Assembly: GCA_017528825.1 (NCBI GenBank)
Contig: JAFXOI010000019.1
Location: forward strand, 1 to 46,789
DNA length: 46,789 nucleotides
Source: Elusimicrobiaceae bacterium
Lineage (GTDB): Bacteria; Elusimicrobiota; Elusimicrobia; Elusimicrobiales; Elusimicrobiaceae
Direction: 5' to 3'
Notes under the pieces: model-generated
Databases searched by the model: none
What the model was told of the DNA's origin: nothing
What the model saw: the letters and a program-made list of their open reading frames with translations, nothing else
Made by a program: the position numbers and the translations under genes
Part shown: positions 2,573-18,397 of the stretch, piece by piece
How the letters are laid out: each line of letters begins with the position of its first letter
How positions within the stretch are numbered: the stretch's first letter is position 1

Positions 2573-3601
2573 CTATAAATTCTTAAAATTGTTTGGGTCC
2601 ATGTAGTAGGGGTCACAGGTGATGCCGCGCGAGGCACAAGAAGGTGCTTTGCCACAATAAGTCCCGCAACAACAAGAAGTTTCATCGTAGGTAGTAACAG
2701 AACGATGACCCCATTCATTAGCCCAATATTGAGTATCTTGAACATGATTTCCACAGGAATATTCTGCATTGGCATAACAAATAGAGCCATTTGTAAATTG
2801 AGCAAAAGCACATCCACCCCAAGAATATGAGCCTGTTTTATTAGATACACAGATACTACCATTTGTAAAAGTATCATTATGACAAGTTCTTCCTGAAGTA
2901 CTAACGCAGATGCCTCCGTCAATATCTAAACTGTTACATCCTCCGTCGTCATCATCACCAATACACACGCTTCCATCTTCCAGATTTTCTTCACGATTAT
3001 TTTTATACCTACATTTCCCGTCCAGTACGCCTAATGCTCCGGCGGCATTACACTTTTCTTCTACAGTGTTATAACATTCTCCGGTAGTAGAGCCCCATAC
3101 ACATGTGCCGTCATTGTCCAATAAATACTTTGTATAACCGTCTTTGCTCCCGGTTTTTGTGCCCATTAATAGTTTTTCACATAAGCGTTCTGCGCGGCTG
3201 TCGCCTGTTTTTGCCTCGCAAAATAAATAACTATTCGGGGCTTTTAAAGACATGGATAGTTTGACATTGGGGAGCGTATTTAACTGTCCGGTAATAGTGC
3301 TTTGATTATTACTTTTAGTTTCTAGGCTATATTCGGCGTCGGGCAGAACAAATTGATTATCGTCTGTTTCTCCCGGTAAAGAAATTGTTAAGGCATCTGC
3401 CACATATGCATAACTTCCATTCTCTAAATAAGCGGCCGCTTGTGCTGTTTGCAGCGCTTTTGCAGGAGTTAGTAAGGTACTCCAGCGGCTTTTATCAATA
3501 GCCCCCTGATACATCGGGATAGCTATGGCACTTAATACAGCTATAATCAGCACTACTACTAATAGTTCGACAAGTGTAAATGCCTGTTTGTTGTATTTCA
3601 T
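2573..3601 (-). CDS. Type IV pilin-like protein A with cysteine-rich repeat tail
   Basis: 342 residues from the ATG at 3601 (AAGGAG upstream); a longer frame to 3715 would run back into the structured leader. The N-terminus is a prepilin leader plus helix, KQAFTLVELLVVVLIIAVLS, with Ala rather than Gly at the cleavage position and the conserved Glu at +5. Residues ~30-170 form a pilin-like region shared with genes B and C (MYQGA-DKS-W-STLL, later CEAKTGDSRAERLCEKLLMG). The tail from ~residue 200 repeats a unit with Phe, Gly-Ser and spaced Cys (FTNGSICVSN, FTNGSICYANAEYSC) and ends in CCCGTYCGKAPSC plus extra residues. Probably exported by a type IV pilus or type II-like system as a minor pilin or surface protein; the role is unknown. 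Confidence 0.85.
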   Translation of the reverse strand: MKYNKQAFTLVELLVVVLIIAVLSAIAIPMYQGAIDKSRWSTLLTPAKALQTAQAAAYLENGSYAYVADALTISLPGETDDNQFVLPDAEYSLETKSNNQSTITGQLNTLPNVKLSMSLKAPNSYLFCEAKTGDSRAERLCEKLLMGTKTGSKDGYTKYLLDNDGTCVWGSTTGECYNTVEEKCNAAGALGVLDGKCRYKNNREENLEDGSVCIGDDDDGGCNSLDIDGGICVSTSGRTCHNDTFTNGSICVSNKTGSYSWGGCAFAQFTNGSICYANAEYSCGNHVQDTQYWANEWGHRSVTTYDETSCCCGTYCGKAPSCASRGITCDPYYMDPNNFKNL

Positions 3602-3842
3602 ATTTTTCTCCTTATCTGTTTTGAAATACAACAAAAACGGCTGTTGTATTTGAGCTAACTCGACTAACCCAAAGTACCACAGCCGTGGTTTGCTATCACC
3701 CGAAGATGATAGCAAACACTCGGCACAACACTGCCGATGGATCAGATCGGTAATGTTGTGCCTAAAACGACTGTCTTTGGAGTCGAGTTATGCTATTGGT
3801 TTCCAATAGCGCACCGTATTCTTCATACGGTTCCAAAAACAG
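3602..3842 (-). promoter_or_regulatory. Structured leader A of pilin-like gene A (putative attenuator RNA)
   Basis: In minus-strand order: P1 5' arm CTGTTTTTGG (3842-3833); hairpin P2 CCGTAT/ATACGG; hairpin P3 GCTATTGG/CCAATAGC; P4 5' arm AACTCGACT (3789-3781); P1 3' arm CCAAAGACAG (3780-3771); P5 GGCACAACA/TGTTGTGCC; P6 GTTTGCTATC/GATAGCAAAC with a TTCG loop; P7 ACAGTCG (3774-3768) with CGGCTGT (3685-3679); P4 3' arm AGTCGAGTT (3665-3657); terminator. P1 and P4 form a pseudoknot with no base between the P4 5' arm and the P1 3' arm. An extended -10 (TGtTATACT, hexamer 3879-3874) lies about 30 bases upstream. The same arrangement precedes genes B and C with different helix sequences. I match it to no known riboswitch class. 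Confidence 0.75.
3633..3685 (-). terminator. Attenuator terminator in leader A
   Basis: On the minus strand CGGCTGT (3685-3679) pairs perfectly with ACAGCCG (3644-3638), followed by TTTTT. The 5' arm is also the 3' arm of P7, so terminator and junction helix exclude each other, and the P4 3' arm lies in the terminator loop. A longer nearby pairing, AATACAAC/GTTGTATT, overlaps the T run. Confidence 0.6.
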
Positions 3843-3903
3843 ATTCAAATTTTATACATCTACTACTATTTCCAGTATAACAAATTTGTGACTATATTGC
3901 ATA

Positions 3904-13351: not shown

Positions 13352-13383
13352 AGGGCTGTGTCTAGGCACAGCCCTATATTTTT
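13352..13383 (+). terminator. Terminator of the uxa/TRAP operon, shared with convergent pilin-like gene B
   Basis: AGGGCTGTG / CACAGCCCT hairpin with a 6-base loop, followed by ATATTTTTAA, 18 bases after the uxaC stop. It abuts the 3' end of the minus-strand gene at 13382. Confidence 0.85.
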
Positions 13384-14482
13384 AACATTTGGGAGCGTTT
13401 GATGGGCAATAGGCTCCTTCACAACATCCTCCGTCATAGGTTACATCTCCATAAACATGTCCACAAGTCCCATATTGATTCGCTATACACTTACTGCCGG
13501 CCTTAAAAGTAGAGCCATGACAAGAATAACCATGATCACCGTTGCATACACTTCCAGAATCAAAAGTTCCCATACACGCATGCGCTCCGCCTGCAATACA
13601 AATAGAATTATCATGAAATTCTCCAGAACAAGTAGAAGCGTTTCCTTCACATGTAGCTCCATAAAATTTGCCTGTACATCCATCCCCTCCTGGAGTAGCT
13701 AAAGACGTACATTTAGATCCTGAATTAAATATGCTATTCTGACAGCCACTTACATATTGATTCCCTCCATAATTTCTAACTGTGCATTCTCCACCCTCAT
13801 TGACTTGCAGATAATTACACGTCCATCCACCATAACAATTTCCTCCCTCTTCAACAACTAACCGATTTTCTTCAGTGCCATTTCCACTAAATGTACAAGA
13901 ATCCATTCCATTAGCTTTACAACGTTCTTCATTTGTTTTATAACATTTTGTTTGTTTATTAGACCACACACGACTAGCATCACCACACGTGGCTTTGTCA
14001 ATTTCTTGGTCTAGTAAATAGGCCGTATAGCCGTCTGCAGAAGTTAAATCCTGCCCCATGAGTAGCTTTTCACAGAGTTTATTGGCACGTTCATCTCCTG
14101 TTTTGGCCTCACAATGTAACTGTCCGGCAAACATTGGGCTTTGGTCTAAATAACTGGCTAAACGCACATTGGCAAGCTTACTATTCGTCACGCGGATGAC
14201 ATTCGGGTCAGCGGTATTATTGGGCGTTACTAAAGCAAAGGTTAAATCACTATTATTCATGGTAACATCTAAATTCGCCATTTCATCGGTATAAGCGCCA
14301 TTGCTCATTTTAATGGCTTCTTCGGCATCTTTAATGGCTTTGGCTCCCGGCAACATGGTGCTCCAATGGCTCTTATCCACCGCCCCTTGGTACATAGGCA
14401 AAGCTATGGCGGATAAAACACCGATAATCAGTACAACAACTAGTAATTCTACTAGCGTAAATGCTTGTGTGTGTTTTGGCAT
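13382..14482 (-). CDS. Type IV pilin-like protein B with cysteine-rich repeat tail
   Basis: 366 residues from the ATG at 14482 (AAGGAG upstream). Prepilin region TQAFTLVELLVVVLIIGVLS with Ala at the cleavage position and Glu at +5, then the shared domain (PMYQGAVDKSHWSTMLPGAK, DPNVIRVTNSKLANVRLASY, GQLHCEAKTG, TAYLLDQEID). From ~residue 190 the chain is a series of units of about 16-20 residues, FxxGSxCx(2-7)C, for example KFYGATCEGNASTC, EFHDNSICIAGGAHAC and TFKAGSKCIANQYGTC, ending GCCEGAYCPSNAPKC. Regular spacing of F, G, S and C suggests a disulfide-stacked beta-solenoid. Closer to gene C than to gene A. Preceded by structured leader B. Confidence 0.87.
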   Translation of the reverse strand: MPKHTQAFTLVELLVVVLIIGVLSAIALPMYQGAVDKSHWSTMLPGAKAIKDAEEAIKMSNGAYTDEMANLDVTMNNSDLTFALVTPNNTADPNVIRVTNSKLANVRLASYLDQSPMFAGQLHCEAKTGDERANKLCEKLLMGQDLTSADGYTAYLLDQEIDKATCGDASRVWSNKQTKCYKTNEERCKANGMDSCTFSGNGTEENRLVVEEGGNCYGGWTCNYLQVNEGGECTVRNYGGNQYVSGCQNSIFNSGSKCTSLATPGGDGCTGKFYGATCEGNASTCSGEFHDNSICIAGGAHACMGTFDSGSVCNGDHGYSCHGSTFKAGSKCIANQYGTCGHVYGDVTYDGGCCEGAYCPSNAPKC

Positions 14483-14712
14483 AATTTCTCCTTGATTGAT
14501 TTTATTTTTAACATAAAAAAAGACGACTGCTATTTGTGAGGTTCAAAGCACACAAATAAACAGCCGCCTACTCGTATTACACGTAATACGAGATGAATGC
14601 TAGTAAATATGGGTAATTAGTCCATATTCACTAGCATCTAAAGCGACTGTTTTTAGCTTTGAACCTCTTTTGCTTACGCAAAAGTGCGGCCTTTACAGAC
14701 CACTAAAAACAG
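14483..14712 (-). promoter_or_regulatory. Structured leader B of pilin-like gene B (putative attenuator RNA)
   Basis: Same plan as leaders A and C with other bases. P1 CTGTTTTTAG (14712-14703) with CTAAAAACAG (14656-14647), ten pairs; a P3 hairpin CTTTTGC/GCAAAAG; P4 GAGGTTCAAAG (14667-14657) with CTTTGAACCTC (14548-14538), eleven pairs; P5 a long hairpin with apical GGACTAATTACCC; P6 CTCGTATTAC/GTAATACGAG; P7 ACAGTCG (14650-14644) with CGGCTGT (14566-14560). P1, P3, P4, P5 and P6 all differ from A and C but still pair. The P4 5' arm directly abuts the P1 3' arm, as in the others. A TACAAT hexamer (14725-14720) lies just upstream. Confidence 0.75.
14515..14566 (-). terminator. Attenuator terminator in leader B
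   Basis: On the minus strand CGGCTGTTTATTTGTG pairs with CACAAATAGCAGTCG (14538-14524) with one bulge and a few G-U pairs, then a T-rich run (TCTTTTTTT). It shares its 5' arm with P7 and encloses the P4 3' arm. Confidence 0.65.
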
Positions 14713-14884: not shown

Positions 14885-14956
14885 GCGCCCGTAGTTCAAT
14901 GGATAGAGCGTCAGCCTCCGAAGCTGGAAATATGGGTTCGACTCCCGTCGGGCGCA
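14885..14956 (+). tRNA. tRNA-Arg (anticodon CCG)
   Basis: 72-nt cloverleaf: acceptor GCGCCCG/CGGGCGC, discriminator A, D arm AATGGATAGAG, anticodon loop CTCCGAA flanked by CAGC/GCTG, T arm GGGTTCGACTCCC. The anticodon CCG reads CGG. CCA is not encoded. The last 17 bases (14940-14956) are repeated exactly at 15285-15301. Confidence 0.92.
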
Positions 14957-15301
14957 AATTTTTTCTTCTAAAATTGCTTTTATACTTTGTTATGTGCTTC
15001 CTCGGGTACCTCGGCCTGCCGGCCTGTTACAGTACACGCTCGGTCGCACATGCCTCGTCTAAAAGCAATTTTTTTTGAAAAAATGCTACTTTCGCAAACG
15101 CCTAGAATTAGGGCTTTTTACTTTGAAAAATTAGTGTATGTACGTCTGAGCACACCCACTACTGGGTGTGCGTGCGGGAGGCGAAGGCCGGAGCGATGTT
15201 TTTGTTTGAGCCGCTTGGCGGAGAAAGGCAAAAACCGCGAGGCCCGGCCCGAAGGCGTTTTATGTCAATAAAACGACCGGAGGGGACTCCCGTCGGGCGC
15301 A
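14957..15301 (+). repeat. tRNA-end element at tRNA-Arg(CCG): structured unit closed by a copy of the tRNA 3' end
   Basis: 345 bases between the tRNA and a 17-base copy of its 3' end. Left part: inverted repeat AAAATTGCTTTTA (14971-14983) / TAAAAGCAATTTT (15060-15072) around GC-rich sequence, then hairpin GCACACCCA/TGGGTGTGC. Core at 15183-15244: GGCC, GCG and GTTTTTG paired with CAAAAAC, CGC and GGCC around an inner stem. Then hairpin CGTTTTAT-GTCA-ATAAAACG (15256-15275), ACCGGAGGG, and the tRNA-end copy (15285-15301). Core, GTCA hairpin, ACCGGARGG and tRNA-end copy recur in the same order beside tRNA-Ser at 24487-24694. No coding region supported. Confidence 0.75.
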
Positions 15302-15535
15302 CTTTTTTGCTACCTCTTTTCAATTTTGCCGTTGTTCTCACTCGCTCGAATACCTCGGCGCTACCGCGCCGCTACGCACAGTATACTTCGTTCGTTCGTG
15401 CCTACTCAAAATTGAAAATAGTTGCAAAATATCTACCCTTATCTTGTCTAAAAGCAATGTTTTTGAAAAAATATTACATTGTATACCCGAGCACACCCAC
15501 TGCTGGGGGTGCGGGTACAAACCGTCTATTGCCTC
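15302..15535 (+). repeat. Second, partial copy of the left half of the tRNA-end element
   Basis: Parallels 14957-15180: an inverted repeat of different sequence (TTTTCAATTTTG near 15317 / CAAAATTGAAAA near 15406) around TACCTCGGC and a GC-rich hairpin, then TGTCTAAAAGCAAT, TTTTTGAAAAAAT and a hairpin starting GAGCACACCCACT. The core and the tRNA-end copy are missing. The two left halves differ in sequence but keep their stems. No gene seen. Confidence 0.6.
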
Positions 15536-16886: not shown

Positions 16887-16951
16887 ATTTTAAGTATAAA
16901 ATTTTTTATAAAGAGAAGACAATAGGTTTTCTTACTTGGCAAAAAAATTGT

Positions 16952-17236
16952 TATACTGTATGGGTAGTACTTGTTACAATTTATCTGTTTTTGGAACCGT
17001 ATGTGGAATACGGAAAGCTTTGAGCTTGCTCAAGGCATCATGCAGTCCAAAGACAGTCGTTTTAGGCACAAAGTGCACGGACTAATTACCCGGGTGCTTT
17101 GTGCCGAGTGTTTGCCGCACCTTCGGGCGCGGCAGACCACGGCTGTTATCATTTTGGGTCACTGCATGAGCTCAAGGATAACGGCCGTTTTTTTGCGTTC
17201 CTTTTCCAAAGACAGAAATAATATGGAGACGAGAGT
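16952..17236 (+). promoter_or_regulatory. Structured leader C of pilin-like gene C (promoter plus putative attenuator RNA)
   Basis: An extended -10 (TGtTATACT, hexamer 16952-16957) and a TACAAT hexamer (16975) precede the fold. P1 CTGTTTTTGG (16985-16994) pairs with CCAAAGACAG (17047-17056); P2 CCGTAT/ATACGG; P3 GCTTTGAGC/GCTCAAGGC; P4 ATGCAGT (17040-17046) with ACTGCAT (17161-17167); P5 GGCACAAAG (17065) with CTTTGTGCC (17097), apical loop ACTAATTA; P6 TGCCGC/GCGGCA with a TTCG in the loop; P7 ACAGTCG (17053-17059) with CGGCTGT (17140-17146). A second CCAAAGACAG lies at 17206-17215 past the terminator, so the P1 5' arm has two possible partners. Confidence 0.75.
17140..17194 (+). terminator. 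Attenuator terminator in leader C
   Basis: CGGCTGTTATC (17140-17150) pairs with GATAACGGCCG (17177-17187), eleven pairs with one G-U, followed by seven T. It lies 43 bases before the start codon, so it would stop transcription unless P7 or P4 forms instead. Confidence 0.7.
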
Positions 17237-18397
17237 ATGCAAAAAAATAAACGAGCGTTTACGCTCATTGAACTACTAATAGTAGTGCTTATCATTGGTG
17301 TGTTAAGCGCGATTGCCATTCCGATGTATCAAGGGGCGGTGGATAAAAGTCATTTCAGCACGTTGTTGCCCGCTACAAAAGCTATTAAAAATGCCGAAGA
17401 AGCCTATAAAATGGCAAACGGAAGGTATACCAATGAAATGAGCGAATTAGATGTAAGTATGACAAACGGTGATGTTTCATATGAGATCCTTACCCCCAAT
17501 AACATGTCAGATCCAAATGTGATCCGTGTGACAAACAATAAACTTTCAGGTGTACGCCTAGCTAGCTATCTAGATGATAGCCCAAAATTTGCTGGGCAGT
17601 TGCATTGTGAAGCGGAAAATGGAAATACACGCGCACAAAGATTGTGTGAAAAATTATTAAGTGGGGAAGAGTTAACAACTACCGACAGTTATACAGCATA
17701 TTTGTTAGATCAAGAGGTAGATTACGCTTTGTGCGATAGCGTAAATCGTAGTTGGTCAACGAGCAAGTCAAAATGTTATAAAGACACTTCATCCCGTTGT
17801 GCGGCACTTGATGTGCCAGTACTTAGTGCTGGAGAAGACACATGTGGTTATCTAGGGAAGAATGGATCCTCATACGATAATAAATTTGATATCGGATCAG
17901 AAGGAGTATGTATAGGAACTAACAGTTGGTCCTGTAATATGGATATTTTTGATAACGGAACTTGTTGGCCCGAAAACTACCACGCATCTTGCATGCAGAA
18001 TGAATATAAAAATAACAGTACTTGTCAGGGAAATGCAAGTGCTGCCTGTATAGATTCGCAATTTTATTCTGGCAGCATTTGTCAAGGAAATACAGCTACA
18101 GCTTGTTCTCGATCAGGTTTTCATGATGGAAGCGTATGTATCGCAAATGTCGAAGGAACTTGTACATACCGAGACTATGCTACTAGTGTGTCAACTTTTG
18201 ATTCCGGCGCTATGTGTGTAGGGAATGCCTCCGGTACATGCAGTACAGGGCTTAAATTAAACCAAGGTGCTATTTGTATCGCTAATGCCAGCGGAACATG
18301 CAATACAGATTATTCTTTAGGGGCGTGTTGCTGTGGAAATTATTGCCCCAGTAGTGCGCCCAAATGTGCCGCTTGCGATTCTCAATATATACATTAA
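17237..18397 (+). CDS. Type IV pilin-like protein C with cysteine-rich repeat tail
   Basis: 386 residues, the longest of the three. Prepilin region KRAFTLIELLIVVLIIGVLS (Ala before the cleavage Phe, Glu at +5), then the domain shared with B (PMYQGAVDKSHFSTLLPATK, DPNVIRVTNNKLSGVRLASY, FAGQLHCEAENG, TAYLLDQEVD). From ~residue 205 at least five units read like QFYSGSICQGNTATAC, GFHDGSVCIANVEGTC, TFDSGAMCVGNASGTC and KLNQGAICIANASGTC, ending ACCCGNYCPSSAPKC. The even Cys spacing suggests a stacked, disulfide-braced solenoid displayed outside the cell. GGAGACGAGAGT precedes the ATG. Preceded by leader C and followed by a strong terminator. Confidence 0.87.
   Translation: MQKNKRAFTLIELLIVVLIIGVLSAIAIPMYQGAVDKSHFSTLLPATKAIKNAEEAYKMANGRYTNEMSELDVSMTNGDVSYEILTPNNMSDPNVIRVTNNKLSGVRLASYLDDSPKFAGQLHCEAENGNTRAQRLCEKLLSGEELTTTDSYTAYLLDQEVDYALCDSVNRSWSTSKSKCYKDTSSRCAALDVPVLSAGEDTCGYLGKNGSSYDNKFDIGSEGVCIGTNSWSCNMDIFDNGTCWPENYHASCMQNEYKNNSTCQGNASAACIDSQFYSGSICQGNTATACSRSGFHDGSVCIANVEGTCTYRDYATSVSTFDSGAMCVGNASGTCSTGLKLNQGAICIANASGTCNTDYSLGACCCGNYCPSSAPKCAACDSQYIH

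What the first reader, a model, noticed from the sequence alone, without database searches (positions are those of the whole stretch)
3602..3842. Unrecognised pseudoknotted leader RNA family before all three pilin-like genes
Leaders at 3602-3842 (-), 14483-14712 (-) and 16985-17194 (+) share one architecture. P1 is CTGTTTTTGG/CCAAAGACAG in A and C and CTGTTTTTAG/CTAAAAACAG in B. P4 has three unrelated sequences that all pair (AACTCGACT/AGTCGAGTT, GAGGTTCAAAG/CTTTGAACCTC, ATGCAGT/ACTGCAT), which is strong covariation. In every copy the P4 5' arm lies inside the P1 loop, directly abuts the P1 3' arm, and its 3' arm lies beyond P1, so P1 and P4 form an H-type pseudoknot that can stack coaxially. 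P7 closes a junction with P5 and P6. The motif lacks the conserved strings of c-di-GMP-I/II, the class I have seen with pilins, and I cannot assign it to any class.
Basis: partly seen in the sequence, partly recalled or inferred. Interest (0 to 1): 0.95.

Follow-up and report, generated by a model that had tools for sequence, protein, structure and literature searches.

The report
Barcoded RNA switches before pilin genes
Gut bacteria of the phylum Elusimicrobiota carry up to about 48 copies per genome of a previously uncatalogued RNA switch in front of pilin and other surface genes; each copy has its own private base-paired 'barcode' and looks built to stop or allow transcription of the gene behind it.

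Summary
All three leaders exist at the stated coordinates. Own genome: about 48 copies; 39 of 115 pilin-like genes carry one. It also occurs in 81 of 89 genomes of the family and in a second family of the phylum. No Rfam 15 family matches. Covariation is overwhelming (50 of 72 pairs with double changes). P4 is complementary within each copy and different in all 39 copies compared.

The fixed-pseudoknot reading is probably incomplete. P7 is a terminator-like hairpin with a U-run, and four strands compete. P1 (1:2) plus terminator P7 (3:4) is one fold. Strand 2 pairing with strand 3, extended coaxially by P4 and enclosing P5 and P6, is the other. The 2:3 complementarity survives in variants with changed sequences. 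Folding predicts the antiterminator just before the terminator's 3' arm is made (39/39) and the terminator afterwards (37/39). I conclude: a new transcription-attenuator family.

Downstream genes are not only pilins but glycan, outer-membrane and DNA-methylation genes. Unexpectedly, P5 loops are palindromes (66% six-nt versus 6% shuffled) in HIV-DIS-like geometry, suggesting leader-leader kissing. Signal, switching and dimerisation are untested.

The parts
3630..3842 (-). Leader A, whole element (P1 5' arm to end of U-run)
   Evidence: CM match 196 bits, E 8.9e-66; blastn family
3833..3842 (-). A, strand 1 = P1 5' arm CTGTTTTTGG
3768..3780 (-). A, strand 2 = P1 3' arm + TCG; pairs with strand 1 (P1) or strand 3 (antiterminator)
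3781..3790 (-). A, P4 5' arm TAACTCGACT
3722..3762 (-). A, P5 hairpin; loop CTGATCC holds the 4-nt palindrome GATC
3688..3717 (-). A, P6 hairpin
3633..3685 (-). A, P7 hairpin (strands 3 and 4) plus U-run: intrinsic-terminator-like; loop holds P4 3' arm (3656-3665)
3874..3884 (-). A, extended -10 TTTGTTATACT
2573..3601 (-). pilin-like gene after leader A (N_methyl)
14516..14712 (-). Leader B, whole element
   Evidence: CM match 97.7 bits, E 2.6e-31
14703..14712 (-). B, strand 1 = CTGTTTTTAG
14644..14667 (-). B, P4 5' arm GAGGTTCAAAG + P1 3' arm CTAAAAACAG + TCG
14596..14639 (-). B, P5 hairpin; loop ACTAATTAC with palindrome TAATTA
14568..14595 (-). B, P6 hairpin
14516..14568 (-). B, P7 hairpin + U-run with P4 3' arm CTTTGAACCTC in its loop
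13382..14482 (-). pilin-like gene after leader B
16985..17195 (+). Leader C, whole element
   Evidence: CM match 198.6 bits, E 1.5e-66
16985..16994 (+). C, strand 1 = CTGTTTTTGG
17038..17059 (+). C, P4 5' arm TCATGCAGT + P1 3' arm CCAAAGACAG + TCG
17065..17105 (+). C, P5 hairpin; loop ACTAATTAC with palindrome TAATTA
17110..17137 (+). C, P6 hairpin
17140..17194 (+). C, P7 hairpin + U-run; P4 3' arm ACTGCATGA at 17161-17169
17202..17215 (+). C, post-terminator repeat of the P1 3' arm (TTTTCCAAAGACAG), complementary to strand 1, just before the ribosome-binding site
16947..16957 (+). C, extended -10 ATTGTTATACT
17237..18397 (+). pilin-like gene after leader C

Best explanation
A new family of cis-acting transcription attenuators. 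Shown by sequence: a 5' leader of about 210 nt with hairpins P1-P3, P5, P6 and a terminator-like hairpin P7 followed by a U-run, tens of nt before the start codon in most copies. Strand 2 (P1 3' arm plus YCG) can pair either with strand 1 (P1) or with strand 3 (P7 5' arm). Strand 3 can pair with strand 2 or with strand 4 (P7 3' arm, terminator). P4, unique to each copy, extends the 2:3 helix coaxially and encloses P5 and P6. Inferred: P1+P7 is the OFF state (termination); 2:3+P4 is the ON state (antitermination). RNA polymerase passes a window between P4b and P7b, where ON is favoured, and then P7b, after which OFF is favoured. The outcome is set kinetically or by a factor or ligand bound to P2/P3 or P5/P6. 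The genes controlled are variable cell-surface and DNA-modification genes.
For: Covariation. P4 in 39/39 own copies, all different. Truncated before P7b: antiterminator and P4 dominate in 39/39, P1 absent; full length: P1+P7 dominate in 37/39. Across 109 leaders 80 meet a strict switch criterion. J pairs with the first three bases of P7a in 102/130 leaders (117 with one bulge) against 5-10% expected, and 116/130 keep all five core 2:3 pairs. 1:2, 2:3 and 3:4 complementarity is kept in ten representatives, including type II and three odd variants: own 2:3 mean -9.4 versus cross-type -4.4 kcal/mol. U-run directly after P7 in nearly all copies. Extended -10 promoter upstream in 28/39.
Against: No transcript, termination or probing data. 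The apical loop of P7 (about 12 nt) is long for an intrinsic terminator, and the consensus scanner, limited to loops of 3-8, did not report it. Vienna cannot score the pseudoknot, so coexistence of P4 with P1 and P7 is not excluded. Swapping P4b among copies still left the antiterminator above 0.5 in 75% of cases, so P4 is helpful but not essential in the model. Most type I copies keep strands 1 and 3 invariant, so 2:3 covariation rests on few independent variants, and one cross-type duplex scored as well as the native ones.
Confidence: 0.74

Rival explanations
1. Static pseudoknotted riboswitch or scaffold: P1, P4 and P7 coexist, P4 coaxial with P1.
For: P4a abuts P1b with no gap and all P4 pairs covary; nothing rules out coexistence.
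Against: Does not explain the conserved complementarity of strand 2 with strand 3 or why nested folding alternates between two exclusive structures. About 10 pairs inside a loop of about 12 nt is sterically demanding (inference).
Confidence: 0.15
2. The leader is mainly a stand-alone small RNA (terminated at P7) that acts in trans; pilin read-through is secondary.
For: Own extended -10 promoter, terminator-like end, about 48 copies, palindromic P5 loops that could join leaders.
Against: Almost always within tens of nt of a start codon on the same strand; cis position is the constant feature.
Confidence: 0.12
3. A second-messenger or metabolite riboswitch (for example c-di-GMP-like) using P2/P3 or P5/P6 as aptamer. 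This is a more specific version of the best explanation rather than an exclusive alternative.
For: Switch anatomy; surface genes; three GGDEF domains in the genome.
Against: No match to c-di-GMP-I/II or any Rfam aptamer. P5 loop and P2/P3 vary widely. DNA-methylase targets do not fit a c-di-GMP regulon.
Confidence: 0.25
4. DNA-level element (recombination or operator site) rather than RNA.
For: Inverted repeats and palindromes; many dispersed copies.
Against: G-U pairs are used freely, polarity and distance to the gene are fixed, a promoter lies upstream and a U-run downstream; recombination between P4a and P4b would have mismatched P4, which is not seen.
Confidence: 0.03

Closest known systems
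Four-strand transcription attenuators (trp/his type) and terminator-controlling riboswitches
   Same: Mutually exclusive 1:2, 2:3, 3:4 pairings ending in a U-run hairpin just before the gene
   Different: No leader peptide or T-box/tRNA elements seen; antiterminator extended by a copy-specific P4; about 48 paralogous copies in one genome
c-di-GMP-I/II riboswitches (upstream of pilins in other bacteria)
   Same: Leader RNA before pilin and surface genes; class II contains a pseudoknot (general knowledge)
   Different: No Rfam match at E<=5; other architecture
HIV-1 dimerisation initiation site (DIS) kissing loop
   Same: Six-nt palindrome in an apical loop; here 57 loops are 9 nt with 2 nt + palindrome + 1 nt (the DIS palindrome GUGCAC with flanking purines is described in PMC7357161)
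   Different: Bacterial leaders, many different and often A/U-rich palindromes, no dimer shown
UpxY/LoaP-type leader antitermination of polysaccharide loci
   Same: Terminators in leaders of surface-variation genes (general knowledge; LoaP is the subject of PMC12691694)
   Different: Only one NusG-domain protein in the genome, so no dedicated paralogue
Termite-flg and Termite-leu motifs (Rfam RF01729, RF01730)
   Same: Structured RNAs known only from termite hindgut (PMC2864571), a habitat of Endomicrobia
   Different: No match in the leaders

Membership tests
Any Rfam 15 family | cmscan score above gathering, or a clear E-value, in a leader | tested here: not met
   No hit in leaders A-C (E<=5) or in the leaders of 15 diverse loci of both families and type II
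Structured RNA leader family | Compensatory base changes beyond shuffled and slid controls | tested here: met
   0/500 shuffles reach the observed values
Transcription attenuator | Terminator hairpin with U-run upstream of the start codon | tested here: met
   By sequence in nearly all copies; not recognised by the loop-limited scanner
Transcription attenuator | Alternative antiterminator pairing conserved across sequence variants | tested here: met
   independent variants are few
Transcription attenuator | Regulated termination in vitro or in vivo | not testable with these tools
   Needs transcription assays
c-di-GMP-I/II riboswitch | Match to the Rfam c-di-GMP riboswitch models | tested here: not met
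Riboswitch | Ligand-dependent change of fold | not testable with these tools
   Needs in-line probing
H-type pseudoknot | P1 and P4 formed in the same molecule at the same time | tested here: inconclusive
   Complementarity holds, but the nested alternative explains it too
DIS-like kissing-loop dimer | Self-complementary apical loop conserved through sequence changes | tested here: met
   89/134 P5 loops with a 6-nt palindrome, eight sequences; none in P2, P3, P6 loops
DIS-like kissing-loop dimer | Dimer formation | not testable with these tools
   Needs native gels

The most novel reading that the evidence does not exclude
Leader RNAs find each other through palindromic P5 kissing loops, and the unique P4 barcode lets only transcripts of the same gene exchange P4 strands. 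A terminated leader could then antiterminate (or lock off) its own gene in trans, giving self-specific feedback and an RNA-based, heritable choice of which surface genes of a large repertoire are expressed.
Probability: 0.13. Interest if true: 0.97.

Novelty: new variant of a known kind. Interest (0 to 1): 0.86.

Why it matters
It is a high-copy RNA family, spread over two families of one phylum and absent from Rfam 15, with up to about 48 paralogous switches in a 1.5 Mb genome, each carrying a private base-pairing code that is kept between species and differs between paralogues. It sits before exactly the kinds of genes that other bacteria phase-vary: pilins, glycan enzymes, outer-membrane proteins, DNA methylases. 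If the attenuator model holds, it is an RNA-level counterpart to phase variation in mostly uncultured gut bacteria. If P5 kissing is real, it would be a bacterial leader network with self-recognition. Both ideas can be tested in vitro with short transcripts.

Tried and rejected
Rfam search of the window and of divergent loci: nothing. c-di-GMP as the obvious pilin signal: GGDEF proteins exist but there is no aptamer match. NusG-paralogue antitermination: only one NusG. Mobile or viral origin: no exact-pattern match in viral contigs. Downstream 'locks': strand 1 pairs with a repeat before the ribosome site (20 of 39 above the 95th percentile of shuffles) and P7b with a downstream segment (14 of 39), suggestive but not universal. 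The consensus terminator scanner was uninformative because its loop limit is 8. The P4b swap control was only partly discriminating. The 2009 Elusimicrobium minutum genome paper is not held; literature searches found no description of this RNA, but many papers are not in the library.

Full report
WHAT WAS CHECKED. The window is a whole contig of a 1.53 Mb genome in 41 contigs. A blastn search with leader A already gave dozens of copies in that genome, most of them just upstream of a pilin-like N-terminus. I aligned 39 copies, built a covariance model and searched again. About 48 sense copies score E<=1e-9 in the own genome. Thirty-nine are followed by a pilin-like gene, two are cut by contig ends, and seven precede another gene or no clear gene.

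IS IT REAL. On 39 own copies 90.9% of cells pair (75.5% shuffled, 37-45% slid), 50 of 72 pairs show changes on both sides, and none of 500 shuffles reaches any of the five measures. The same holds on the independent sets from other genomes, which include some weak antisense or partial matches. P1 itself is nearly invariant in type I copies. P4 is complementary in all 39 copies, mostly over 9-11 bp (one copy has an internal mismatch), P4a abuts P1b with a gap of 0-1 in 38, all 39 P4 sequences differ, and in 38 of 39 the own partner is the best of all 39 candidates.

HOW WIDESPREAD. 81 of 89 genomes of the family have it; genera g1, g2 and g5 do, g3, g4 and g6 do not. In the phylum search hits extend to a second family, f21. 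A pattern search of named genomes returned only Elusimicrobiota records or unnamed uncultured bacteria, many from rumen, horse, deer and other gut samples. The order-level relatives listed lack it.

WHAT THE ANATOMY SAYS. P7 (CGGCTGTT...AACAGCCG) is followed at once by TTTTT and lies tens of nt before the start codon: an intrinsic-terminator-like hairpin. Strand 2 (CCAAAAACAG-YCG) resembles strand 4 (AACAGCCG), and strand 1 (CTGTTTTTGG) resembles strand 3 (CGGCTGTT..TTTGGG). So 2 can pair with 3. J (YCG) has no partner in P1, yet it pairs with the first bases of P7a in 102 of 130 leaders (117 with one bulge), against 5-10% at random positions; 116 of 130 keep all five core 2:3 pairs. In variants with other sequences (L161 AATAG/CTATT, L181 AAGAG/CTCTT, L264 AACGGCG/CGTCGTT, type II ATAATCG/CGATTAT) all three pairings are kept. 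P4 then is a coaxial, nested extension of 2:3, because P4a lies directly 5' of strand 2 and P4b 3' of strand 3. This removes the need for a pseudoknot, though it does not exclude one.

FOLDING TEST. Without pseudoknots, transcripts cut just before P7b fold into 2:3 plus P4 in 39 of 39 copies, with P1 at zero. Full leaders fold into P1 plus P7 in 37 of 39; leader B of the window stays in the antiterminator fold and L021 is balanced. Of 109 leaders, nearly all from other genomes of two families, 80 pass a strict switch criterion. Foreign P4b lowers the mean antiterminator probability from 0.94 to 0.69, so the model does not depend on P4 alone.

P4 AS A BARCODE. Across species, apparent orthologues keep P4: own L033, L147, L125 and L156 share CAGAGCAAGT while the rest is 86-87% identical. 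Other copies with 84-93% identity elsewhere often share only 30-60% of P4. Orthology was judged from sequence similarity, not from synteny. Recombination between P4a and P4b would break the match, so matched P4 is evidently under selection (inference).

P5 PALINDROMES. P5 apical loops are self-complementary: 89 of 134 contain a six-nt palindrome (5.9% in shuffled loops) and 126 a four-nt one (38% shuffled). The six-nt ones include UAAUUA, UUAUAA, UCAUGA, UUCGAA, UUGCAA, CUCGAG and UAGCUA; 57 loops have exactly 2 nt + palindrome + 1 nt. P2, P3 and P6 loops have no six-nt palindrome, although those loops are shorter. This is the layout of the HIV-1 DIS kissing loop (layout from general knowledge; palindrome and flanking purines in PMC7357161). 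Intermolecular pairing is the natural reading, but many of these palindromes are A/U-rich and weak, and type II leaders lack P5, so dimerisation cannot be required for the basic switch.

WHAT IT CONTROLS. In the own genus mostly pilin-like genes. Elsewhere also polysaccharide pyruvyl transferase, RgpF, GT8 and DUF4422 glycosyltransferases, outer-membrane barrels, a capsule-type epimerase, EcoRI-type, N6_N4 and Eco57I methylases, and lipoproteins. The automated pilin count (45 of 103) is too low, because about ten pilins with long N-termini were missed. These are the gene classes that other bacteria phase-vary (general knowledge). In the same genome 34 of 67 examined pilin-like genes without the leader have a -35/-10 spacer made of 8-16 T, the classic form of a phase-variable promoter.

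MECHANISM. Shown: family, structure, conserved alternative pairing, genomic context. Inferred: termination at P7, antitermination through 2:3+P4, regulation by an unknown factor or by kinetics. Unknown: the signal and whether leaders meet in trans.

COMPARISON. It works like a four-strand attenuator or a terminator-type riboswitch. It is not a member of any Rfam 15 family and shows no sign of c-di-GMP aptamers or of a NusG-paralogue system. I rate it a new family and a new variant of a known kind, not categorically new, because attenuation is well known; the private P4 code over dozens of paralogues and the palindromic loops are the unusual parts.

Noticed in passing
Other contigs of the same genome: L189-L257, e.g. 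L190, L195, L211, L237, L250: 34 of 67 pilin-like genes without the leader have TTGAC(A) - T(8-16) - TA..AT promoters with poly-T as spacer (spacing 13-20), i.e. probable slipped-strand phase-variable promoters.
   Followed up: partly
Genome G000: 115 N_methyl (PF07963) pilin-like starts in 1.53 Mb, an extraordinary repertoire.
   Followed up: partly
L208, L220, L221, L229, L263, L267 (own genome), L169-L171, L182: A second leader type with P1 GATTATTTGTTGG/CCAACAAATAATC and only one hairpin in place of P5 and P6.
   Followed up: partly
L009, L016, L019, L229, L238, L240: A repeated palindromic element (GTCATGCTGAG..CTCAGCAT..AATAAGG..) sits between leader or promoter and pilin, in several cases apparently in frame, lengthening the pilin N-terminus.
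   Followed up: no
L006, L014, L018, L019, L021, L023, L036 upstream of P1: A good part of the leaders have a longer 5' end with a GGAG(G) ribosome-site-like sequence and a small hairpin but no evident start codon.
   Followed up: no
window 14885-14956 and about 15287-15303: The 3' end of the tRNA gene (GACTCCCGTCGGGCGCA) is repeated about 350 bases downstream, as after insertion of a small element at a tRNA.
   Followed up: no
window 2573-3601, 13382-14482, 17237-18397: The pilin-like proteins are 340-390 aa with a Cys-rich C-terminal part made of repeated motifs (GSxC.GN...C) that Pfam does not recognise.
   Followed up: no
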